From contig NZ_MLAO01000011.1 in the NCBI RefSeq assembly GCF_002272835.1, positions 1 through 64,000 on the forward strand: a stretch of DNA of 64,000 bases, in the 5' to 3' direction. The stretch is from Helicobacter sp. 11S03491-1 (GTDB taxonomy: Bacteria > Campylobacterota > Campylobacteria > Campylobacterales > Helicobacteraceae). Made by a program: the position numbers and the translations under genes. The notes under the pieces are model-generated. The model was not told the origin of the DNA, searched no databases, and saw only the letters and a list, made by a program, of their open reading frames with translations. Below are positions 1,388 through 40,218 of the stretch, piece after piece. Each line of letters opens with the position of its first letter. Position 1 is the stretch's first letter.

Positions 1388-1702
1388 CTAAAATGCAAAC
1401 ATTGCATTTAAGATCTCACATAAAGCCATACAATCATCAACGCCTAACTCACCTATTTTATTAATAAGCCTGCTTTTATCAACACTTCTTATATGATCAC
1501 ATAACAGCAAGGAAGACTTGTTGTTAAATTGAATTCTTAATCTGCAAGGCAAATCAAAACCTTTTGTTGTTAAAGGAATAACAATTCTTGTATATAAATC
1601 ATTGAGTTCATCGGGAGAAACAATCACACAGGGTCTGGTTTTTTTGACTTCTTTGCCTTGTGTGGGATCTAAATTAATATACCAAATTTCAAATCGTTTC
1701 AT
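1388..1702 (-). CDS. mazF: MazF/PemK-type mRNA interferase toxin
   Basis: A 104-residue protein of typical MazF/PemK length. It opens MKRFEIWYINLDPTQGKEVKKTRPCVI, matching the family pattern (G-[ED]-[VI]-[x2]-[x]-RP-x-[VL]-[IV]). Members fold as small SH3-like barrels and cleave single-stranded RNA; Arg and Thr in the TRP segment and the later S/T before the conserved D-Q/H region contribute to catalysis. The start at 1702 overlaps the antitoxin stop by the classic ATGA. The pair forms one transcription unit read from the antitoxin side. It is wedged between duplicated copies of the ssb tail, pointing to recent acquisition. Confidence 0.9.
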   Translation of the reverse strand: MKRFEIWYINLDPTQGKEVKKTRPCVIVSPDELNDLYTRIVIPLTTKGFDLPCRLRIQFNNKSSLLLCDHIRSVDKSRLINKIGELGVDDCMALCEILNAMFAF

Positions 1703-1947
1703 TCCCAATCTTTCAAATCCAAATCAAATCTTAAAAATTCATTATCAAAACTGTTTGTATTGTTTTTCAAAGCAGATTTTACCTTATTCTCCCAACCTGA
1801 TCTTTTGTTTGTTCCAATAGGTTTAATAAGAAGTCCTTCTTTTAAAATCTCAAAGGTTAATTGTGTATTTTGAAGTTTTGTTTTTTCAATATAAGCCTTT
1901 GGAATTCTTATACCCAAAGAATTTCCTATCTTAATCAAGGTTGTCAT
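1699..1947 (-). CDS. mazE: MazE/AbrB-type antitoxin
   Basis: An 82-residue protein whose N-terminus (MTTLIKIGNSLGIRIPKAYI) is the AbrB/MazE swapped-hairpin DNA-binding domain. The acidic, flexible C-terminal half (about residues 48-82, ending DLDLKDWE) would wrap the toxin. A strong AAGGAG site lies 7 nt before the ATG. MazE proteins neutralise MazF and repress their own promoter, which would lie between 1948 and 2003 just outside the ssb repeat. It overlaps mazF by 4 nt. Confidence 0.9.
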   Translation of the reverse strand: MTTLIKIGNSLGIRIPKAYIEKTKLQNTQLTFEILKEGLLIKPIGTNKRSGWENKVKSALKNNTNSFDNEFLRFDLDLKDWE

Positions 1948-2003
1948 TTTGCTCTCCTTATCCTGACAGATATGTTATTATATTGTATCTACATAAACAG
2001 GTT

Positions 2004-2157
2004 TATATTTATTTTAGATTGATTCAATATTTCAAAATCATATAGAAGGTGCTGAAATATCTTTATTAAGGATATTTCAGAATGGAATTTCTTCACCTTC
2101 ACCTAAAAGAGAAATAATTTCTTCGTGTTTGGCAGAAGATTCTTGAGATTCTTTTGA
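2004..2157. repeat. 154-bp direct repeat, copy B (in place at the ssb 3' end)
   Basis: Identical to 1220-1373. In this copy the sequence continues in frame into the rest of the ssb remnant, so it is the original position. The 630 bp between the copies (1374-2003) is the mazEF cassette. Confidence 0.97.
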
Positions 2158-2439
2158 GGGTGCTTGGGCATTCTCTTGTATTGGAGTGTCTGAAACACCG
2201 GAAGAGACATTGGTTGTTGGGTTTTCACTCCGGGCATTCTCTTCTTGGGCAAGTTCTTGGGTTTGGGCTTTGGTATCCATCATTTGCATGCTTTCAGCCA
2301 TGATGGTATGCTTGCTTCTTTTTGTGCCATGTTGATCTGTCCAACTCTCCAAACTCAAGCGTCCTTCAATCAAAACTTTCGAACCTTTTCTGAGATATTC
2401 ATTAGCCACTTCTGCTCCCCTGCCAAAGAGTTTGACATC
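2077..2439 (-). pseudogene. ssb: 5'-truncated single-stranded DNA-binding protein (ssb remnant)
   Basis: The readable SSB homology starts at [16 protein letters not shown] near 2439 and runs through the C-terminal half of the OB fold ([16 protein letters not shown]) to a Gln/Ser/Asn-rich linker and the acidic tip EEIPF. Bacterial SSBs of this family are about 170-180 residues; the first 55-60 residues of the OB fold are absent. Upstream in the same frame the translation loses similarity and meets a stop about 20 codons further. A GTG at 2409 preceded by AGGGGAG could start a 110-residue fragment, but this could not form a complete OB fold. A full ssb, normally between rpsF and rpsR, should exist elsewhere in the genome. 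Confidence 0.8.
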
Positions 2440-2484
2440 TTGTAAATTGCCACATAAAACCGAAGTGATTTGAAACTTAAAATC

Positions 2485-2509
2485 GAAGTGAGGGGCTCAC
2501 TTCTGTTTT
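2485..2509. terminator. 8-bp stem hairpin, likely terminator
   Basis: GAAGTGAG and CTCACTTC pair perfectly around a GGG loop, followed on the plus strand by TGTTTT and on the minus strand by GATTTT. It sits at the broken 5' end of the ssb remnant, where it may mark a junction with foreign DNA. Confidence 0.55.
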
Positions 2510-2702
2510 ATATGGCAAAAATTAGAATTAAATTAAGCTTAAAATTAAACTTTTTTAATTCTATATCTACTCTATTTTAGATCCGATACAAATACTCCAA
2601 ATACCAAAGATTCTTTTTTGAGTAAATAAAAAACATCAATGGCTATTCTCTCAATCTCTAAGCCCTTTAGCTTCCTCTTAAGCCTATAACCCCTTCATTA
2701 AC

Positions 2703-2888
2703 TTAATCCAAAACTTCAACGGCTAAAATATTGGAATTACGATGACTCCAAATATTAACGATTTTATCTTTATCAAAAACTTCAATAAAATTATCTTGGC
2801 AGTCAAATTTTGAAATAGCATTTAATGGGATCTGCGTGGCTATAGGTTCAAAGCCAACTTCTGAGTAATCTTTTGTTTGATGCTTCAT
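2703..2888 (-). CDS. small hypothetical protein, 61 aa
   Basis: I do not recognise this protein. It has ordinary composition (EVGFEPIATQIPLN near the middle, ending AVEVLD), no signal peptide and no membrane helix. AGGG lies a few bases before the ATG, but the site is weak. A further open stretch without a start follows downstream to about 2576. It lies between the ssb scar and yqhA, so it may be a fragment of an accessory gene. Confidence 0.4.
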   Translation of the reverse strand: MKHQTKDYSEVGFEPIATQIPLNAISKFDCQDNFIEVFDKDKIVNIWSHRNSNILAVEVLD

Positions 2889-3000
2889 TACCCTACATTT
2901 TTATTTTTTGAATTTGTTTTTATTTGTTGTTATGGTGCGCATAATAATTGTTGAAATGTTATAATTCCATCTCAGAAACATTTTATTTTCGGAGATTTTG

Positions 3001-3507
3001 ATGGAGTTTTTACAAAAATTGTTTGAAAAATTACTTTGGAATTCAAGACTTTTTATTTTGTTGGCAGTTATTTTGTCAATGGTAGGAGCAGTATTGCTTT
3101 TTATTGTGGCAAGTATTGATGTAATTAAGGCTGTAATAAATACTTATAAATATTACTTTAATTTATTAGATCAAGAGTCTGATATACATAATGTTTTGCT
3201 GCATATGATTGTCTCAGCGATTGATTTGTATCTGATTGCGGTAGTGCTTTTAATTTTTTCATTTGGACTTTATGAACTTTTTATCAGGAAAATCACTATC
3301 AAAGATGATAAAAGTTCAAAAGTTTTAGAAATTCACACCCTCGATCAACTCAAAGATAAATTGGCAAAAGTTATTGTCATGGCATTGATAGTAGCATTTT
3401 TTTCAAAAGTTCTTAGTATGGGGATAACCGATGCTAAAGATATGGTATTTTTTGCTTCATCTATATTGGCTATTTGCGTTGGTCTTTATTTTTTGCACAA
3501 ACATTAG
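3001..3507 (+). CDS. YqhA/UPF0114 family inner-membrane protein
   Basis: A 168-residue protein with hydrophobic segments near residues 16-40, 67-95, 124-142 and 146-163. It fits the UPF0114 (YqhA) family, whose N-terminal part (LWNSRLFILLAVILSMVGA) and FSFGLYELFI region are characteristic. The function is unknown; an inner-membrane location is predicted. The ATG at 3001 follows GGAG at 2990-2993; a TTG just before it was rejected as the weaker start. It stands alone on the plus strand and converges on the CNNM gene with only 4 bp between them. Confidence 0.8.
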   Translation: MEFLQKLFEKLLWNSRLFILLAVILSMVGAVLLFIVASIDVIKAVINTYKYYFNLLDQESDIHNVLLHMIVSAIDLYLIAVVLLIFSFGLYELFIRKITIKDDKSSKVLEIHTLDQLKDKLAKVIVMALIVAFFSKVLSMGITDAKDMVFFASSILAICVGLYFLHKH

Positions 3508-3521
3508 AAGCTTAGGCTTCT
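3506..3521. terminator. short bidirectional hairpin between convergent genes
   Basis: AGAAGC and GCTTCT pair around TTAG, overlapping both stop codons of the convergent yqhA and CNNM genes, with a short TTT after it on the plus strand. A weak shared terminator is plausible. Confidence 0.35.
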
Positions 3522-4849
3522 TTGAGTTCCTCATCATTTTGTATGCGTATTTTTTTAATTTTAAGTTTTTTGATTCTTGCTCCTTCCATGTCTAAGACTT
3601 CAAATTCGCAGTATTTATCACTCACACAATCTCCTATAACGGGGAGTCTTCCAAGCAATCCAAATACATACCCTCCAATTGTAACTTGCTCACATTCATC
3701 ATCAAATTTCACGTCCATAATTTCTTCAACACTTTCTAAGTCCATTGTCCCATTAAATTCATAGGTATCTTCATCAATACGTTGCATATCTTCACTTTTA
3801 AGATCATGCTCATCAGATATATCTCCCATAATCTCTTCAATGATGTCTTCCATTGTTAATAAGCCTGCTGTTCCGCCATATTCGTCAATGACAAGTGCCG
3901 TATGGATTTGTTCTTTATTCATTTTGATAAGAATTTGTGAAATAGAAGCGCTTTCAGGTACGATAATCATTTCTCTTACGAGACTTTTCATATCATGTTT
4001 ATTTGCATCAAATATCGAGCTTGTAAGCAAATCGCGAATATGAATCATTCCAATAATATTGTCTTTATTGCCTTTGCAATAAGGATATCTTGTATGCCTG
4101 CTTTCCATTACAATTTGAATATTTTCTTCATAGCTTTTTTCAGTATTTAGGCAAATCATATCTTTTCTGGGGGTCATGATTTCTTTTGCAATAGTATCTG
4201 AAAAATCTACGGCATTTTTGATGATTTCACCCTCAATAGAGTCAATGAAACCCCCTTTTAAACTTTCTCCTACAATGATTTTGAGTTCTTCTTCAGAATG
4301 TGCATTATCTTGACCTTTTGAAGGTTCTATGCCTATTCTTTTTAAAAAAAATGCAGCCAAAATATCAAAAAGTTTAATGACCGGATAAAATATCACCCAA
4401 AATGAGTATAAAGGTCTTGCAACAAAAAGAGCTGCATTTTCAGACTTAGCAATAGCTATTGATTTGGGCACAATTTCGCCCAATACGACGTGTAGAAGAG
4501 TGATAAAAGTAAAAGCAACAACAAAGCTAATTGTATGTACAACAATAGGATTAGATCCAAAAAGTTTGTCCAATGGGACACTGAGAATCCTGGCTACTGC
4601 AGGTTCTCCAATCCAACCCAACGCTAATGAAGAGAGTGTGATACCAAGTTGAGTGGCACTTAAATAAGTATCCAGTTGATTAGATATTTTTAAAGCTAAC
4701 TTTGCATTTAATTTATTGGTTTTGGCTAATTCTTCAAGGCGAGTTTTTCTTACCTTGACAATAGCAAATTCAGAGAGGACAAAAAAAGCATTCAAAAAAA
4801 CTAAAAATATTGCGCAAATAAACATTAAAACCGACTGATACGGGTCCAA
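3512..4849 (-). CDS. CNNM/CorC family membrane transporter with CBS pair
   Basis: A 445-residue protein in the hemolysin C/CorC group (HP1490-like). Residues 1-150 hold the CNNM (DUF21) membrane domain with the hallmark LNAFFVLSEFAIVKVRKTR. Two CBS domains follow (EIMTPRKDMI near 225; ALVIDEYGGTAGLLTMEDIIEE near 315-340), then a CorC_HlyC domain. Family members are linked to Mg2+/Co2+ handling; the old 'hemolysin' label is not well founded. The start is TTG at 4849, supported by AAGGAG 7-8 nt upstream. The PiT gene lies upstream on the same strand, so the two may be co-transcribed as in H. pylori HP1490-HP1491. Confidence 0.88.
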   Translation of the reverse strand: MDPYQSVLMFICAIFLVFLNAFFVLSEFAIVKVRKTRLEELAKTNKLNAKLALKISNQLDTYLSATQLGITLSSLALGWIGEPAVARILSVPLDKLFGSNPIVVHTISFVVAFTFITLLHVVLGEIVPKSIAIAKSENAALFVARPLYSFWVIFYPVIKLFDILAAFFLKRIGIEPSKGQDNAHSEEELKIIVGESLKGGFIDSIEGEIIKNAVDFSDTIAKEIMTPRKDMICLNTEKSYEENIQIVMESRHTRYPYCKGNKDNIIGMIHIRDLLTSSIFDANKHDMKSLVREMIIVPESASISQILIKMNKEQIHTALVIDEYGGTAGLLTMEDIIEEIMGDISDEHDLKSEDMQRIDEDTYEFNGTMDLESVEEIMDVKFDDECEQVTIGGYVFGLLGRLPVIGDCVSDKYCEFEVLDMEGARIKKLKIKKIRIQNDEELKEA

Positions 4850-8053: not shown

Positions 8054-8950
8054 ATGAAATTTTTAAAATCTGTTTATAATTTTTGTTCGGGTTGGACAGG
8101 GACAATTGTTATTGTCTTGTTTGTAATATTTTTTGTTGCACAGGCATTTATTATACCTTCTCGTTCAATGGTGGGAACTTTGTATGAAGGGGATATGTTA
8201 TTTGTCAAAAAGTTTTCTTATGGCATACCTACACCTAGAATCCCTTGGCTAGAGATTCCAATTTTTCCTGATTTTAGAGGAGATGGACATATCATAGAAG
8301 GCAAAAGACCTCAAAGAGGCGATGTTGTAATTTTTATCCCTCCTCATGAAGAAAAAACATATTTCGTCAAAAGAAATTTCGCAATTGGTGGTGATGAAGT
8401 TATTTTTACACAAAAGGGGCTTTATCTTCATCCTTATGAAGGGGATAATTATATAGAGTCTCATTATGATCCCTCAAGAATCACTACGATGTTGGGCAAG
8501 AAATTTGTTTTTGAACCTTATTCTTTGGCGCATTTAGGTATTCATTATAAGCATAATAATTCTTCTTATTTTAGAATGGCAGCTATTGCTCAAGATCTTT
8601 GGACAAAAGGATTGTTAGGCAGCAATGATGATCCTAATCAAATAGGGATTGCAATGATGCCTATAAATCTTGATGGTCAATTAGCTTTTTACAAAAAAAT
8701 CGCTCCTGATGAGTTTTTTATGATTGGGGATAATCGTGATAATAGCGATGATTCTAGATTTTGGGGTAGTGTTGCTTATAAAAACATTATTGGCAAGCCA
8801 TGGTTCATTTATTTTAGCATTAATCTTAAAAATAGTGTAGAAGCAGGGGTGCAAGATAATCCTAAGGCAATCTTTACAATACGGTGGAATCGAATGTTTA
8901 AGAGTGTTGAAGGACTTGAGAGTGAACTTAAGAAAAAAGTAGAGGGATAA
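8054..8950 (+). CDS. lepB: signal peptidase I
   Basis: A 298-residue inner-membrane protease that removes signal peptides from exported proteins. One N-terminal helix (residues 16-34) is followed by PSRSM with the catalytic Ser38, and YFVKRNFAIGGDE with the general-base Lys106. Box E, GDNRDNSDDSRFWG, lies near residues 225-238. The extra 60-70 residues between the catalytic blocks are usual for Helicobacter LepB. It follows folD by 14 bp and abuts the M50 protease gene directly. Confidence 0.96.
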   Translation: MKFLKSVYNFCSGWTGTIVIVLFVIFFVAQAFIIPSRSMVGTLYEGDMLFVKKFSYGIPTPRIPWLEIPIFPDFRGDGHIIEGKRPQRGDVVIFIPPHEEKTYFVKRNFAIGGDEVIFTQKGLYLHPYEGDNYIESHYDPSRITTMLGKKFVFEPYSLAHLGIHYKHNNSSYFRMAAIAQDLWTKGLLGSNDDPNQIGIAMMPINLDGQLAFYKKIAPDEFFMIGDNRDNSDDSRFWGSVAYKNIIGKPWFIYFSINLKNSVEAGVQDNPKAIFTIRWNRMFKSVEGLESELKKKVEG

Positions 8951-9622
8951 ATGCAAATTTTAAATTCTTTTTTATCTGCAGATATTCTCAAACCTCTTAT
9001 CATGATAGTGACTTTTTTGATAGCCATCATTGGTCATGAAATCATGCATGGGTGGGTTGCTTTTAAATATGGCGATGACACAGCCAAAAAAATGGGCAGA
9101 CTAAGCATTAATCCAATCAAACATATTGATCCAATAGGTTCGATCCTCATCCCTTTGATTTTATTTGTTATCCAAGCCCCTTTTTTATTTGGATGGGCAA
9201 AACCTGTGCCTATTAATATGAATTTCATTATTCAAAGATGGGGTTATGGGGCGGGAGTGGCAGTAAGTTTGGCAGGAGTAGCTTATAATTTAATTTTGGC
9301 TTTGATTGCAAGTGGGATTTTGTTTAGCGGCATTTTTGGAAATGTTTTGGGAGATTGGGAAATCATTATAGTGGCTTTTTTAACACAACTTATTGTTTAT
9401 AATGTGGTATTAGGTGTTTTTAATCTTTGGCCTATCCCTCCACTTGATGGTTCTCAGGCTTTGGGATTTATTTGTCTCAAATTAGGCATTCAAAGCATTC
9501 CAAGATTTTTTTATCAAATAGGCGCTTATGGTACGATGATTATTTTGCTTATTCTGGCCACCCCATTATCAAGAATATTTTTTTATCCAACAGAATTTTT
9601 ATTGCAATTTTTATTAACATAA
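8951..9622 (+). CDS. site-2 protease family (M50) membrane metalloprotease
   Basis: A 223-residue polytopic protein with the zinc motif HEIMH at residues 29-33 inside the first helix and the second metal-ligand motif NLWPIPPLDGSQ in a later helix. These are the active-site elements of intramembrane M50 proteases of the short, PDZ-less type (HP0575-like). Its substrate is unknown. It starts immediately after the lepB stop codon, so two proteases acting on membrane-inserted segments are translated together. Confidence 0.88.
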   Translation: MQILNSFLSADILKPLIMIVTFLIAIIGHEIMHGWVAFKYGDDTAKKMGRLSINPIKHIDPIGSILIPLILFVIQAPFLFGWAKPVPINMNFIIQRWGYGAGVAVSLAGVAYNLILALIASGILFSGIFGNVLGDWEIIIVAFLTQLIVYNVVLGVFNLWPIPPLDGSQALGFICLKLGIQSIPRFFYQIGAYGTMIILLILATPLSRIFFYPTEFLLQFLLT

Positions 9623-9632
9623 AGGATTTTTG

Positions 9633-10070
9633 ATGGTTTATATTTTGGGAACAGATCATGCAGGTATTATTCTTGGAGATTTTGTAAAAAATTATTTAAT
9701 TTCAAATGGTTTTGAAGTCATTGATTATTCTCCAAAACAAGCCCATAAGGTAGATTATCCGGATTTTGCCCAAAAAGTATGCAAAGAAGTTTTAAAAACA
9801 GGAGATGCAAAAGGAGTGTTGATTTGTGGAACAGGTATTGGAATGAGTATTGCTGCTAATCGTTATAAAGGAATCCGAGCCGCCTTATGCTTAGATGCTT
9901 ATATGGCAAAAATGGCCAGACTTCATAATGATGCTAATATTTTATGTTTGGCAGAACGTATTAGTGGTTTGGGTGAGGTAGAATCAATTATGGAAGCTTT
10001 TATCCATACTGAATTTGAAGGAGGAAGGCATGCGTGTAGGGTTTCAAAAATTGAGGATTTTGATTCTTAG
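9633..10070 (+). CDS. rpiB: ribose-5-phosphate isomerase B
   Basis: A 145-residue RpiB/LacA-type isomerase interconverting ribose 5-phosphate and ribulose 5-phosphate. GTDHAG at the N-terminus and LICGTGIGMSIAANRYKGIRAAL in the middle carry the catalytic Cys and anion-hole residues. ATG 9633 is preferred over the TTG directly before it because of the AAAGGA at 9621. Length is normal. It sits 10 bp after the M50 gene in the folD operon. Confidence 0.94.
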   Translation: MVYILGTDHAGIILGDFVKNYLISNGFEVIDYSPKQAHKVDYPDFAQKVCKEVLKTGDAKGVLICGTGIGMSIAANRYKGIRAALCLDAYMAKMARLHNDANILCLAERISGLGEVESIMEAFIHTEFEGGRHACRVSKIEDFDS

Positions 10071-10076
10071 GAGTTT

Positions 10077-10421
10077 ATGATGACAAATGTAGCTATAGAG
10101 TGGTTTTTAGTTACGGTTTTTATTCTTTTTGTTCTCTATATGATTATTAAGACTTTTTTCTATAAGTCAATCGCAGAAAAAGAAGAAAGAAATTCAGCTT
10201 CAATGAAGCTTACCCTTCAAGAAGCTGAAATCTTAATTCAAAAACATCAGTTACAACTTCAAAGAGCATTAGGAAATATTGATATACTTACTCAGGAAAT
10301 GAATTCATTAAAAAATGAAGTCAAAACACTCAAACAAAGAAATTCTCAATATCGTATTGAAACAGATAAATACAGAAGCAGGATTAAAGATTTGGAGCAA
10401 AAAATTGAAGCTCTCTTATAA
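10077..10421 (+). CDS. membrane-anchored coiled-coil protein (HP0573-like)
   Basis: A 114-residue protein with one helix at residues 6-26 ([18 protein letters not shown]) and then a long charged coiled coil to the C-terminus ([19 protein letters not shown]). No enzyme motif is visible. AGGAG lies 4 nt before the first of two consecutive ATGs, so the second, at 10080, is equally possible. Its fixed place between rpiB and apt in Helicobacter suggests a conserved gene, but the function is unknown. Confidence 0.75.
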
Positions 10422-10429
10422 GGAAAAAT

Positions 10430-10982
10430 ATGCATCCATTTTCTAAACAATTTAAAAAAGATTTGCTGGATTCTATCAGAAATATCCCTGATTACCCAAA
10501 ACCGGGAATTATTTTTCGAGATATCACAACTTTAATCAACTCTCCTTTATTTTCTAAACTCATTGATGCTCTCAAAGAATATTATTCTCCTATGAATATT
10601 GATTTTGTTGCCGGAATTGAATCACGAGGGTTTATTTTTGGCGCATCATTAGCCTATGCTTTAAATATAGGATTTGTTCCTATTAGAAAAAAAGGCAAAC
10701 TTCCTTTTACAACCGTAAGTGAAAAATATACTCTTGAGTATGGTTTTGATGAGATTGAGATCCATATTGATGCCTTTAGAGACTTACAAAAACCGCGGGT
10801 ATTACTTATTGATGATTTAATTGCTACAGGAGGCACAGCTGCTGCAAGTGTAAAATTAATTCAAAGCGTAGGAGCACAATGTCCGGAGGCTTGTTTTATA
10901 CTAAATTTGCCCCAATTAGGAGGGATAAAAAAGATCGAAGGTCTCACTAAGGTATTTACAATATTGGATATAGGGGGAGAAA

Positions 10983-37527: not shown

Positions 37528-38026
37528 AACTACTCTTTCTCAGGTGTTCTTATTTTATCTTCAATAAGTGTATTTTGGCAATGCAAATAGCACAATGATT
37601 TATCAAAAATTATAACTTAAAATCCGGATAAAAAACAAATAACTCTTCTTTAAAAATATTAAAATCCTCAAATGCAGGCTAAAATATTTTAGCCTTAAAA
37701 TTTAAGCTACCAAAATAAAAACTAAAATCCCTAAAAATTTTACTTTTGTCTTTTGATGAAATATTTTAGATTTTAGTTAAAAATTTAAAATATATAAAAT
37801 AAATTTATTTATATTTAAATCAAATATTATTTTTTATAATAAACTAACCATAAATCACTAAAATATTCTTATTATTATTTCAATCCGGAACTCTGCTATA
37901 AAATCTTAATGAGGGGTATCTAAAATAAATTTTACTTATCTTGATGTTTTGAAACTTCAGAAGTTAATCTCTCAAAAGTTAAAATTTTGCTAATCTTGAC
38001 TTTGATGAGAAAATTCTATCAAGAAA
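37528..38026. other. AT-rich gap upstream of dnaE
   Basis: About 500 bp without a convincing gene. It contains a 20-bp perfect palindrome (37676-37695) and a very AT-rich near-palindromic tract around 37780-37825. The dnaE promoter must lie near its left end; the right end leads into the small-peptide locus. Confidence 0.6.
37676..37695. repeat. 20-bp perfect palindrome
   Basis: AGGCTAAAATATTTTAGCCT reads the same on both strands and is followed by TTAAAATTT. It could be a hairpin terminator for plus-strand transcription or an operator 150 bp upstream of dnaE. Confidence 0.7.
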
Positions 38027-38055
38027 TTCAAATAAAGACATAATTGTGTTATAAA
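38027..38055 (+). promoter_or_regulatory. promoter of the 31-aa peptide gene
   Basis: TTCAAA at 38027-38032 and TATAAA at 38050-38055 with a 17-base spacer, and TGT immediately before the -10 (extended). It would give a leader of about 50 nt ending in AAAGGG before the ATG. Confidence 0.55.
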
Positions 38056-38111
38056 ACGTGTCATAAAAAAGATTTAAAAAGACTTTTGAAATCCAAAAGA
38101 AAGGGAACACA

Positions 38112-38207
38112 ATGAAAAAGCTAAGATTATTCGCACTAATCCTGCAAATTGTCTTCTATTTGATAGCGATTTGCAAACTCTTCTTTTGGAGAAGAGACCC
38201 CGTTTAA
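38112..38207 (+). CDS. 31-aa hydrophobic peptide, candidate type I toxin
   Basis: The peptide starts MKKLRLFALILQIVFYLIAI, continues through one membrane span to CKLFFW, and ends RRDPV. Basic residues flank a helix of about 20 residues, the layout of membrane-acting type I toxins such as TisB or ShoB. AAAGGG lies 6 nt before the ATG. Bases 38106-38115, covering the start codon, are perfectly complementary to 38221-38230 after the stop, with a further 4 bp (38118-38121 with 38215-38218). Two hairpins fill the 3' end of the frame. A consensus promoter on the other strand would produce an antisense RNA over the whole gene. I know of no named family for the peptide; toxicity is inferred from architecture. 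Confidence 0.65.
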   Translation: MKKLRLFALILQIVFYLIAICKLFFWRRDPV

Positions 38208-38230
38208 CGGGGTTGCTTAATCATTGTGTT
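38114..38230 (-). ncRNA. predicted antisense RNA opposite the 31-aa peptide gene
   Basis: Predicted from an extended -10 (TGG then TATAAT, 38244-38236 on the minus strand), giving a start near 38229-38230. The RNA of about 115 nt would contain hairpins at 38213-38197 (ACCCCG/CGGGGT) and 38196-38178 (CTCTTCT/AGAAGAG), then end in a 7-bp hairpin (38143-38137 with 38129-38123) followed by five T residues at 38119-38115. It covers the full peptide frame and would pair with its mRNA. Expression is not shown by sequence. Confidence 0.5.
38178..38213. repeat. two adjacent hairpins at the peptide gene's 3' end
   Basis: CTCTTCT/AGAAGAG (38178-38184 with 38190-38196) and ACCCCG/CGGGGT (38197-38202 with 38208-38213) abut without a gap. 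The second spans the stop codon. Neither is followed by a good T run on the plus strand, so they look structural rather than terminating. Confidence 0.8.
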
Positions 38231-38235
38231 AGCCA

Positions 38236-38244
38236 ATTATACCA
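38236..38244 (-). promoter_or_regulatory. extended -10 promoter for the antisense RNA
   Basis: Minus-strand TGGTATAAT is a perfect TGn-TATAAT. No good -35 is visible, but Helicobacter housekeeping promoters often lack one. Confidence 0.55.
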
Positions 38245-38256
38245 CAGGAGACGCAA

Positions 38257-38367
38257 ATGGACTTAGAATTTTTGCTAATCATTATTTTAGCAGGTTGGGT
38301 TGGGGTGAATGAGTGGCGATTAAATAAGCTTGAGAAGAAGATAAAAACATTCCAAGAAAGACTCTAA
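38257..38367 (+). CDS. 36-aa membrane peptide
   Basis: MDLEFLLIIILAGWVGVNEW forms one membrane helix; the remainder (RLNKLEKKIKTFQERL) is an amphipathic, coiled-coil-like tail. ACAGGAG sits 7 nt before the ATG, a strong ribosome-binding site. A good terminator follows at 38380. It lies 49 bp after the candidate toxin and may share its transcript. The N-anchor plus coiled-coil layout resembles small phage or plasmid accessory peptides. I do not recognise it. Confidence 0.6.
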   Translation: MDLEFLLIIILAGWVGVNEWRLNKLEKKIKTFQERL

Positions 38368-38379
38368 CCATTGCCGGAG

Positions 38380-38408
38380 CCCGCTTCTATTGAACGGAAG
38401 TGGGTTTT
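38380..38408 (+). terminator. rho-independent terminator after the peptide genes
   Basis: CCCGCTTC (38380-38387) pairs with GAAGTGGG (38397-38404, one G-U) and is followed directly by TTTT. It ends the small-peptide unit and overlaps the upstream region of the IbrA-like remnant. Confidence 0.8.
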
Positions 38409-38456
38409 ATGGAGTGGAGACAACATTCCAATTTTTTAAAAGCGAGGTACCATAAC

Positions 38457-39014
38457 ATGGAAATGCAAGTTTTTCAAGAAGAAATCATTGATGAGAAATA
38501 TTCGGAAAGCTCAAAACAATATTTGGATATAAATGTCCTTGAAGCCACAAAAGGTCGGCTATGGTTTGTATTGGATAACTTTAAAAATATCTGCATTAGT
38601 TTCAGCGGGGGTAAAGATAGCACCATACTCCTCCATCTTGTGCGTGAATATTTAAAACACAAACCCGAATTAAAAACAAAAAAGAATCTCTTTATTTATC
38701 ACTTGGATTATGAAGCCCAATATAACCAAACCACAAAGTTTGTGCAACAAACCCTCCAAGAATGTAAGAAAGAAGGCTTTAAGATATTTTATATCTGCAT
38801 GCCCTTCAAAGCCCAATGTGCTTGTTCGATGTATCAAACCTATTGGAGACCTTGGGCGATAGAAGACAAAGACAAATGGCTAAGAGAACCTCCAGGTTAT
38901 AGCATTACAGAGGAAAACCATTCTTTTGATTTTTGGAGCAGGGATTTGAGCGATTGCGCTTTTAATGTTGAGCTATTATTAAAATTAATTTTAATAATAG
39001 CTTCTATAGAATAA
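38457..39014 (+). pseudogene. 3'-truncated IbrA-like (DUF3440) PAPS-reductase-family gene
   Basis: The 185-residue frame begins near MEMQVFQEEIID (ATG 38457; an in-frame ATG at 38409 lacks a ribosome-binding site). ICISFSGGKDSTILLHLVRE holds the SGGKDS PP-loop (residues 50-55) of ATP pyrophosphatases related to PAPS reductase. The later blocks (CMPFKAQCACSMYQTYWRPWAIEDKDKW; REPPGYSITEENHSFDFW) fit DUF3440/IbrA proteins found in prophages and islands, which are usually about 400 residues. Similarity stops at about 38960, and the last codons run into a 32-bp palindrome. The C-terminal half is missing, and no ibrB partner follows, so it is probably inactive. Confidence 0.65.
38971..39002. repeat. 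32-bp perfect palindrome
   Basis: AGCTATTATTAAAATT is followed at once by its exact reverse complement, with no loop bases between. It lies at the point where the IbrA-like gene breaks off and may be a bidirectional terminator, a recombination site or a fold-back scar. Confidence 0.9.
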
Positions 39015-39335
39015 TTTTTAGATTTAAAACAAAGTGAAAACCAGTAAAATTAGAATGTCCTAAAATAGGCGACTATAAGGCTATGATCCGGATTATACCT
39101 CTAAAAACACTCGGCATAAGGTATTTAATGCTATTTGGAAACTAATTTTAACCTTAAACCACATAAAATAGGGACTTATAAAGTTTTGCAATCCCTCTCT
39201 CCCGGCCATTGAATTTATTAAATTTTAGTTTTTCCGCATTCTTTTATTTTTACAAATATCTTCTATTAAAGATTTATTCATATTTTATATAATTGCATAT
39301 GTTATTGAGGCATTTAAAAATAAAAGGCAACAAAG
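39015..39335. other. 321-bp gap with decayed element DNA
   Basis: No intact gene. It contains the 19-bp tRNA-Ser fragment at 39190-39208 and, near its right end, a TATAAT at 39288-39293 that probably serves the first DUF1090 gene. Confidence 0.6.
39190..39208 (+). repeat. 19-bp copy of the tRNA-Ser 3' end (attachment-site-like)
   Basis: AATCCCTCTCTCCCGGCCA matches 23438-23456, the last 19 nt of tRNA-Ser(TGA) including CCA, without a tRNA attached. Such fragments are left as att repeats when integrases insert elements at tRNA 3' ends. It marks the right edge of the accessory segment. Confidence 0.8.
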
Positions 39336-39731
39336 ATGGTTTTGAAGGTTTTTTTTATTATATTCCTATGGAGTTCTTTTGTATATGCAGGTCCGGTGTG
39401 CAAATATAAACTCAATGATTTTAAAGCTCAGATTGATTATGCAAAAAAAAATCATTTATCCCAAAAGGTCAAAAAACTAGAAAAAACTATGTCAGATTTT
39501 CAAAAAACTTGCAAAGATTCTGATATTTTGGCAGAAATCAACCAAAATATTCAAATAACTCAAAAAAATCTCCAACAAGCCCGGACAAACTTTAATAACG
39601 CACAAATTGAGGGCAATGCGCATCAAATCAGACAAACAAGCATACAACTCAAAATTGCAAATCTTGAATACATTGCTGCTAAACAAGAGCTTTTGAGAAT
39701 GAAAGATTTATTAAAAACACAAAGACAATAA
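39336..39731 (+). CDS. DUF1090 family periplasmic protein, copy 1
   Basis: A 131-residue protein with a signal peptide (MVLKVFFIIFLWSSFVYAGP, cleavage after YA). The mature part matches DUF1090/YqjC: CKYKLNDFKAQIDYAKKN, a second Cys in DFQKTCKD, then a long charged helix. It should fold as a helical hairpin fixed by one disulfide in the periplasm; its function is unknown. AAAGG precedes the ATG. A paralogue follows 82 bp downstream. Confidence 0.8.
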   Translation: MVLKVFFIIFLWSSFVYAGPVCKYKLNDFKAQIDYAKKNHLSQKVKKLEKTMSDFQKTCKDSDILAEINQNIQITQKNLQQARTNFNNAQIEGNAHQIRQTSIQLKIANLEYIAAKQELLRMKDLLKTQRQ

Positions 39732-39773
39732 TCTTTAGTATGATTTATTTTAAATTTTTAGGAGAAATTAGGC

Positions 39774-39779
39774 TATAAT
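39774..39779 (+). promoter_or_regulatory. -10 box for the second DUF1090 gene
   Basis: A perfect TATAAT 35 bp before the second DUF1090 start, with no good -35 match. Confidence 0.4.
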
Positions 39780-39813
39780 TCTATGTTTTAAAAAATAATT
39801 TTTAGGAGAAAAA

Positions 39814-40218
39814 ATGAAGAAATTTTTTATTTTAAGTGCTGTAGCTTGTGGTATTTTGATAGCAGGACCTGTCTGTGATTTTAAAGAAAAAGATGTGCTT
39901 TCTCAGATTGATTATGCAACCAAACATAATCATAAAGATAAGATTTCAGGTTTGCAAAAAGCCTTGAAAGAATTACGAGATCATTGCAAAGATAATATCG
40001 TTTTAAGCGAACTTGAACTTGATGTCCAAAAGCTTGAAAATAAGGTGATTGAAGCAAAGTCAAAAATAACTCAAGCTCAAGCAAAAGGTAAGGCTGATCG
40101 TATTAAAAAAGCAGAAATGAAGTTAAGATTAATTGAAACAGAATTAGCCTCAAAAAAAGACGAACTTCAAAGGATGCAGGATTTAGCTAAGGGAAATAAT
40201 CCTCAACCAAAGTCTTAA
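39814..40218 (+). CDS. DUF1090 family periplasmic protein, copy 2
   Basis: A 134-residue paralogue of the preceding gene. The signal peptide is MKKFFILSAVACGILIAGP; the mature part starts CDFKEKDVLSQIDYATKHN, with the second Cys in LRDHCKDN and the charged helix KAEMKLRLIETELASKKDEL. TTAGGAGAA gives a strong ribosome-binding site. The two copies share the framework AGPVC-x-n-QIDYA-x-C-KD but are clearly diverged, so the duplication is not recent. Confidence 0.8.
   Translation: MKKFFILSAVACGILIAGPVCDFKEKDVLSQIDYATKHNHKDKISGLQKALKELRDHCKDNIVLSELELDVQKLENKVIEAKSKITQAQAKGKADRIKKAEMKLRLIETELASKKDELQRMQDLAKGNNPQPKS

What the first reader, a model, noticed from the sequence alone, without database searches (positions are those of the whole stretch)
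38027..38408. Candidate new type I toxin-antitoxin locus in the accessory scar
A self-contained unit: promoter (TTCAAA-17-TATAAA, extended), leader with AAAGGG, a 31-residue single-helix peptide with basic ends, structured 3' part, and an opposing consensus promoter with its own terminator-like end. The combination of a tiny membrane peptide, a start codon that can be masked by the distal part of the mRNA, and a full-length antisense RNA is the defining layout of type I systems. H. pylori has aapA/IsoA loci of this design, but the AapA peptides I recall (about 30 residues, such as those starting MATKHGKNSWKTL) share no obvious sequence with this one. It would be a new peptide family within a known architecture.
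Basis: partly seen in the sequence, partly recalled or inferred. Interest (0 to 1): 0.85.

Follow-up and report, generated by a model that had tools for sequence, protein, structure and literature searches.

The report
Prophage toxin cassette with antisense switch
This short stretch is a worn copy of an unnamed prophage cassette, found in many Helicobacter-related bacteria, in which a tiny membrane peptide (probably a toxin) appears to be kept silent by its own folded messenger RNA and by an antisense RNA; related prophages carry up to five such cassettes in a row, mostly with different RNA locks.

Summary
Window 38027-38408 encodes a 31-aa membrane peptide (pep1, 38112-38207). Its start region (AACACAATGA, 38106-38115) is exactly complementary to 38221-38230. 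An extended -10 promoter (TGGTATAAT, 38244-38236) lies on the minus strand.

I collected 26 homologous units from prophages in two families of the order. Across them:
- The start/anti-start helix covaries: 42 double-changed cells against 16±3 in shuffles, 0/500.
- The antisense -10 is TGnTAnAAT in nearly all, with the n fully free, 5-10 nt from the anti-start in 23 of 25.
- Both ORFs are under purifying selection (pN/pS 0.29).

An architecture-only scan found further cassettes with diverged peptides. Some form tandem arrays of 4-5, with small HTH genes between cassettes and mostly distinct start/anti-start pairs.

No Pfam, NCBIfam or Rfam family matches either peptide or the RNA. The layout resembles aapA/IsoA and yonT/SR6/yoyJ, but it belongs to neither.

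The window copy is decayed: degenerate promoter, lost leader palindrome, lost stop codon, no HTH gene, truncated downstream gene. Neither toxicity nor the antisense RNA has been shown experimentally.

The parts
38027..38055 (+). degenerate sense promoter (TTCAAA-17-TATAAA, 9/12). By sequence alignment the position homologous to the relatives' TATAAT is CATAAT, 38039-38044
   Evidence: relatives have TTGACA-17-TATAAT at 12/12, with the -10 ending 48-61 nt before ATG
38062..38098 (+). 5' leader that has lost the perfect palindrome/hairpin found in relatives
   Evidence: fold z = +1.0 here against -1.1 to -8.7 in the other 25 units
38106..38115 (+). start region AACACAATGA, masked by the anti-start element (SD-like AAAGGG at 38100-38105)
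38112..38207 (+). pep1, 31-aa single-helix peptide MKKLRLFALILQIVFYLIAICKLFFWRRDPV; the last 6 residues arise from a lost stop codon
   Evidence: relatives; pN/pS 0.295
38196..38213 (+). G+C hairpin after pep1 (contains the pep1 stop codon)
   Evidence: a hairpin of different sequence stands here in nearly all relatives
38221..38230 (+). anti-start element TCATTGTGTT, exact complement of the start region
38236..38244 (-). extended -10 (TGGTATAAT) of the antisense RNA; predicted start near 38229, reading leftward over pep1
   Evidence: conserved as TGnTAnAAT in nearly all of 24 distinct sequence contexts; spacing to the anti-start 5-10 nt in 23 of 25
38257..38367 (+). pep2, 36-aa membrane peptide with a charged coiled-coil-like tail, MDLEFLLIIILAGWVGVNEWRLNKLEKKIKTFQERL, with SD AGGAG 38246-38250
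   Evidence: pN/pS 0.293
38376..38408 (+). terminator-like 13-bp hairpin ending in TTTT, probable 3' end of the sense transcript; shared with the copies on own contig C10
38457..39014 (+). 5' part of a phage PAPS-reductase-like (IbrA-type) gene, truncated; its 3' part lies on contig C10

Best explanation
A decayed copy of a prophage-borne, type I-like toxin-antitoxin cassette. In intact copies a strong promoter makes an mRNA for two small membrane peptides. The start codon of pep1 (25-28 aa, the presumed toxin) is sequestered by an anti-start element about 110 nt downstream, so the full-length mRNA cannot be translated into pep1. An antisense RNA is started by an extended -10 promoter in the pep1-pep2 spacer; it begins at the anti-start and runs back over pep1, acting as antitoxin. 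Pep2 has its own ribosome site outside the antisense RNA and is probably made whenever the mRNA is; whether it is a second effector or a partner is unknown. A small HTH protein encoded next door probably represses the sense promoter through palindromes in the leader and upstream. Shown by sequence: helix, covariation, antisense -10, selection on both ORFs, neighbour genes, arrays. Inferred: that the antisense RNA is made, that pep1 is toxic, that the HTH binds the palindromes.
For: Start/anti-start helix of 8 or more bp in 24 of 26 units. Covariation 0.397 against 0.142±0.021 in shuffles, 42 double-changed cells against 16±3.3, 0/500 reach it, and slid versions collapse. Antisense extended -10: TG and TA..AAT near-invariant, with the spacer base of the motif fully free (G8 A7 T5 C4) in 24 distinct contexts; 5-10 nt from the anti-start in 23 of 25. 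Sense promoter TTGACA-17-TATAAT at 12/12 in many relatives. pN/pS 0.29 for both ORFs in the coding frame only. Minimum-energy folds of nearly all units mask the pep1 start. An architecture-only scan gives 0 hits in 768 kb of shuffled sequence and recovers cassettes with diverged peptides. Prophage context with HTH and antirepressor neighbours. The published hallmark of type I loci is a non-translatable primary transcript, in some by long-distance pairing (PMC6733600).
Against: There are no transcript data and no toxicity data. Two diverged units (G103, G103b) do not show the helix in the common register. The role of pep2 is unexplained. The window copy itself has lost its promoter consensus, leader palindrome, stop codon and HTH neighbour, so it may be silent. 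Sequences are related, so shuffle p-values are not probabilities.
Confidence: 0.75

Rival explanations
1. Pep1 is not a toxin but a regulatory leader peptide: its masked start and the hairpins control expression of the downstream pep2 and phage regulator (attenuation or translational coupling), and the antisense promoter tunes this.
For: The unit often precedes and overlaps an antirepressor or HTH gene. There is a G+C hairpin between pep1 and pep2.
Against: Pep1 is conserved as an amino-acid sequence (pN/pS 0.295) rather than as a codon-specific leader. The anti-start masks pep1, not pep2. The hairpin lacks a U-tract. The neighbour downstream changes between units while the pep1/anti-start/antisense block stays.
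Confidence: 0.12
2. A two-peptide phage membrane function (holin-like lysis or superinfection exclusion), timed by RNA structure and antisense RNA, with no addiction role.
For: Two membrane peptides in prophages; pep2 has a very weak match to a PHROG holin (E 0.22).
Against: The cassettes stand beside repressor or antirepressor-like genes, not in lysis operons, and occur in tandem arrays. Peptides of 25-38 aa are shorter than known holins (general knowledge). The mechanism of control would still be type I-like.
Confidence: 0.2
3. In the window the locus is only a non-functional prophage scar; nothing is expressed there.
For: Degenerate promoter, lost leader palindrome, lost stop codon, truncated IbrA-type gene and missing HTH gene. 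Rearranged neighbourhood: all six congeners have another gene upstream of dnaE.
Against: The pep1 helix, pep2, anti-start pairing, antisense -10 and terminator hairpin are all still intact in this copy.
Confidence: 0.5
4. A diverged member of the H. pylori aapA/IsoA family.
For: Same order of bacteria, similar size of peptide, long-distance masking of the toxin start, antisense promoter recognised by its -10 box (PMC6733600).
Against: No sequence relation found: the pep1 profile finds no PDB chain at E up to 10, although an AapA1 NMR structure is published. The antisense promoter lies in the spacer, not in the ORF. A second ORF is always present, and an HTH gene usually.
Confidence: 0.05

Closest known systems
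aapA/IsoA type I toxin-antitoxin family of Helicobacter pylori (PMC6733600, PMC8309996)
   Same: Roughly 30-aa inner-membrane peptide; primary mRNA silenced by long-distance pairing of the translation start region; cis-antisense RNA from a promoter with a -10 box; stable 5' stem-loop
   Different: Unrelated peptide; antisense promoter in the intercistronic spacer rather than inside the ORF; second membrane ORF in the same mRNA; prophage location with HTH neighbour; tandem arrays. In H. pylori several copies are present on the chromosome
yonT/SR6/yoyJ of Bacillus subtilis prophage SPbeta (PMC5848175)
   Same: Prophage-borne, two small ORFs on one mRNA, antisense RNA from an extended -10 promoter at the junction of the two ORFs
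   Different: SR6 overlaps the yonT 3' end and the yoyJ ribosome site; here the antisense starts upstream of the pep2 ribosome site and covers the whole of pep1. I found no start/anti-start locking or HTH described for it in the passages read; different peptides
hok/Sok and par-type systems (general knowledge; long-distance masking mentioned in PMC6733600)
   Same: Long-range mRNA pairing that blocks toxin translation until processing, plus antisense RNA; addiction role on mobile elements
   Different: No mok-like overlapping frame; peptides unrelated; second ORF downstream with its own SD

Membership tests
type I toxin-antitoxin systems (general) | small hydrophobic peptide encoded by the sense mRNA | tested here: met
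   25-31-aa single-helix ORF under purifying selection
type I toxin-antitoxin systems (general) | primary transcript not translatable because the start region is sequestered | tested here: met
   covarying start/anti-start helix, folds; by computation only
type I toxin-antitoxin systems (general) | antisense RNA antitoxin transcribed from the opposite strand | tested here: inconclusive
   conserved minus-strand extended -10; no transcript data available
type I toxin-antitoxin systems (general) | peptide is toxic when antitoxin is absent | not testable with these tools
   needs expression in a laboratory strain
aapA/IsoA | AapA peptide family | tested here: not met
   no match of the pep1 profile to PDB chains at E up to 10; no obvious sequence likeness to the AapA start quoted in the finding
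aapA/IsoA | antisense promoter inside the toxin ORF | tested here: not met
   -10 lies 12-24 nt upstream of the pep2 ATG, in the spacer; IsoA3 -10 is in the ORF
aapA/IsoA | long-distance interaction masking the toxin start region | tested here: met
   similar principle, but here the start codon itself is paired
yonT/SR6/yoyJ | antisense RNA covers the 3' end of toxin 1 and the ribosome site of toxin 2 | tested here: not met
   predicted antisense start lies upstream of the pep2 SD and runs over pep1
Rfam RNA families | match above gathering score in the unit | tested here: not met
Pfam, NCBIfam and PADLOC protein families | match of pep1 or pep2 | tested here: not met

The most novel reading that the evidence does not exclude
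Campylobacterota prophages carry a previously undescribed, modular class of type I-like cassettes: toxin peptide plus partner membrane peptide plus HTH repressor. They multiply in tandem and diversify their start/anti-start and antisense sequences and their operators, so that each cassette is regulated separately; this would be a set of parallel locks that could act in prophage maintenance or in competition between related phages.
Probability: 0.4. Interest if true: 0.87.

Novelty: new variant of a known kind. Interest (0 to 1): 0.77.

Why it matters
Type I systems are hard to find because the peptides are tiny and the RNAs unannotated. A recent survey of Helicobacter prophages mentions only type II systems among cargo genes (PMC11840440), and the pep1 and pep2 genes are unannotated or 'hypothetical' in the phage records. 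The covariation and the conserved antisense promoter give an architecture signature that finds new members without peptide homology. Tandem cassettes with mostly distinct RNA pairs (mean own duplex -18.6 against cross -8.8 kcal/mol) would make a natural test case for how antisense specificity evolves. The apparent addition of a dedicated HTH repressor would link RNA-based and protein-based control in one module.

Tried and rejected
Exact-substring test of the leader palindrome against the upstream region: mostly not significant; a gapped, specificity-based test was positive (permutation p 5e-5; Stouffer z 6.2), but composition effects are not fully excluded, so the operator idea is kept as an inference. 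RNAalifold on the MAFFT alignment gave no pairs because loops of different length misaligned the anti-start; the helix was counted on fixed start and anti-start pieces instead. Rfam hit SpF61_sRNA in the leader (20.6 bits against a cut-off of 60) is chance. PHROG holin match of pep2 (E 0.22) judged chance. PDB hits of pep2 are generic coiled coils and other weak matches. IMG/VR hits L014, L017, L018 to the pep1 pattern are chance matches outside the layout. No plasmid match. No covariance model was built: peptide profiles and the architecture scan already gave the distribution. No structure prediction was run: peptides this short give little information.

Full report
WHAT IS THERE. The window region 38027-38408 contains, on the + strand, a leader with AAAGGG, a 31-aa ORF (pep1, 38112-38207), a G+C hairpin (38196-38213), an element TCATTGTGTT (38221-38230) that is the exact complement of the pep1 start region AACACAATGA, a second small ORF of 36 aa with a good SD (pep2, 38257-38367), and a terminator-like hairpin (38376-38408). 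On the - strand an extended -10, TGGTATAAT (38244-38236), points back over pep1. The 356-nt RNA folds with z = -5.5 and pairs the start codon with the anti-start. A strict architecture-only scan of the 64-kb window finds this site and no other, and none in 768 kb of shuffled window.

RELATIVES. The DNA matches three Helicobacter prophages and a second copy in the same genome, inside a prophage on contig C10. Profiles of pep1 and pep2 find units in 9-11 of 121 species of the family. Pep2 matches occur in 9 of 153 species of another family of the same order, though one of these (G274) carries only broken matches. Several IMG/VR contigs also carry the unit. I used 26 units. G105 appears to be Helicobacter sp. 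13S00477-4: its contig C20 has the same length and sequence as an IMG/VR contig of that genome and C5 holds BK070152, so the window's genus is that group of Helicobacter (inference).

EVIDENCE THAT THE RNA ARCHITECTURE IS REAL. (a) Start/anti-start helix: 24 of 26 units have 8 or more consecutive pairs (G-U allowed) at the same place, in several different sequence versions (ACACAATGA, GATAAGATGA, GATACAATGA, GGAAAAGATGA, AACACGATGA, AGGCAAAT). On 20 distinct pairs the covariation score is 0.397 against 0.142±0.021 in shuffles, 42 double-changed cells against 16±3.3, 0 of 500 shuffles reach it, and slid versions collapse. (b) Antisense promoter: in 24 distinct sequence contexts the minus strand reads TGnTAnAAT with near-invariant TG, TA, AA and T while the n of the extended motif is free (G8 A7 T5 C4), the signature of an extended -10. 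Its distance to the anti-start is 5-10 nt in 23 of 25 units, so the predicted antisense RNA starts at the anti-start. Helicobacter promoters often lack a -35 (general knowledge); the IsoA3 promoter is described by its -10 box. (c) Both ORFs evolve as proteins: pN/pS 0.295 and 0.293 in frame, about 1 or more in the other frames. (d) The sense promoter is a perfect TTGACA-17-TATAAT in many relatives, 48-61 nt before the start.

CONTEXT. In most units a 67-93-aa HTH gene lies 80-210 bp upstream of pep1, divergent or co-directional; downstream lie antirepressor-like (Bro-N, Rha-like) or further HTH genes, often overlapping the pep2 stop. The leader carries a palindrome of unit-specific sequence that resembles the unit's own upstream sequence more than that of other units (permutation p 5e-5; Stouffer z 6.2 against shuffled upstream). 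I read these palindromes as operators of the neighbouring HTH protein; this is an inference, and an exact-match version of the test was weak.

ARRAYS. The architecture scan, which ignores peptide sequence, finds further cassettes with clearly diverged peptides. In BK070152 (= G105 contig C5) five cassettes follow one another every 609-690 bp (pep1 at 1412, 2102, 2742, 3395, 4004), with HTH-type ORFs between them. On G105 contig C20 there are four in a row plus two elsewhere on the same strand. One hit occurs in 612 kb of shuffled sequence with the relaxed rule. Start/anti-start pairs are mostly specific: mean own duplex -18.6 against cross -8.8 kcal/mol, own the best in 8 of 11; the exceptions share closely similar start sequences. 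None of these peptides is annotated in BK070152.

THE WINDOW COPY IS A REMNANT. Its best sense promoter is 9/12 (TTCAAA-17-TATAAA; the position aligned to the relatives' TATAAT is CATAAT). Its leader palindrome is gone (z +1.0 against -1.1 to -8.7 in the others). The pep1 stop codon is lost, adding WRRDPV. There is no HTH gene. The next gene is only the 5' part of an IbrA-type phage gene whose 3' part lies on contig C10 with a 59-bp overlap. In all six congeneric genomes another gene stands upstream of dnaE, so this is a rearrangement scar. The anti-start pairing, antisense -10, pep2 and terminator hairpin are intact, so expression cannot be excluded.

MECHANISM. Most likely: the sense mRNA is born with a pep1 start that becomes locked once the anti-start is transcribed; the antisense RNA pairs with pep1 mRNA that escapes or is processed, as IsoA does (PMC6733600); pep2 is translated independently; the HTH protein limits sense transcription. 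When antisense supply or repression falls (prophage loss or induction), pep1 would accumulate in the membrane. Shown: sequence anatomy, covariation, selection, neighbours. Inferred: RNA production, toxicity, repression, role of pep2.

COMPARISON. It works like aapA/IsoA but is not a member: unrelated peptide, antisense promoter in the spacer, two ORFs, prophage arrays. It resembles yonT/SR6/yoyJ in having two ORFs and a junction antisense, but the antisense covers the first ORF and not the second ribosome site. No match of either peptide in Pfam, NCBIfam or PADLOC, and none of the RNA in Rfam. No held paper contains the peptide strings, and a 2025 Helicobacter prophage survey mentions only type II systems as cargo. 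Arnion et al. 2017 was not held, so published aapA-like loci outside H. pylori could not be checked directly.

Noticed in passing
L006 (BK070152) 1412-4100; L073 (G105 C20) 3071-3498 and 8216-10142; L074 (G105 C5) 8288-10880: Tandem arrays of 4-5 cassettes (pep1, pep2, HTH) with mostly different start/anti-start sequences in one prophage; found by architecture, not by peptide similarity.
   Followed up: partly
window 38914-39002; L009 (own contig C10) 9591-8693 minus: IbrA-type PAPS-reductase gene split between two contigs with a 59-bp exact overlap; a 32-bp perfect palindrome (38971-39002) sits at the break in the window.
   Followed up: partly
window 37528-39330: In six congeneric genomes dnaE has a different upstream neighbour (a MauG/cytochrome-c-peroxidase-like protein, by eye, in five); here it is the phage remnant followed by two DUF1090 genes (39336-40218): a rearrangement breakpoint.
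   Followed up: partly
L009 (own contig C10) 7580-7131 and 7138-6365, minus strand: SocA/Panacea-domain (antitoxin-like) protein followed by an overlapping membrane protein, a candidate Panacea toxin-antitoxin pair in the same prophage.
   Followed up: no
L009 6360-6000, minus strand: Remnant of another cassette directly before the HTH gene: pep2-like MEWIQTIGNIALIIFLVITFFKISNIEKRIRKLEDKIDKKESHE with a pep1-like stretch that has lost its start.
   Followed up: partly
L027, L028, L029, L032: Several genomes of one genus (g3) hold degenerate copies in which pep2 remains but the pep1 start is lost; some carry long G runs in the spacer hairpin.
   Followed up: no
L060 and L061 (G505, G508): Identical pep1 and pep2 with different HTH genes and correspondingly different leader palindromes, a natural swap that suggests HTH-operator specificity.
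   Followed up: partly
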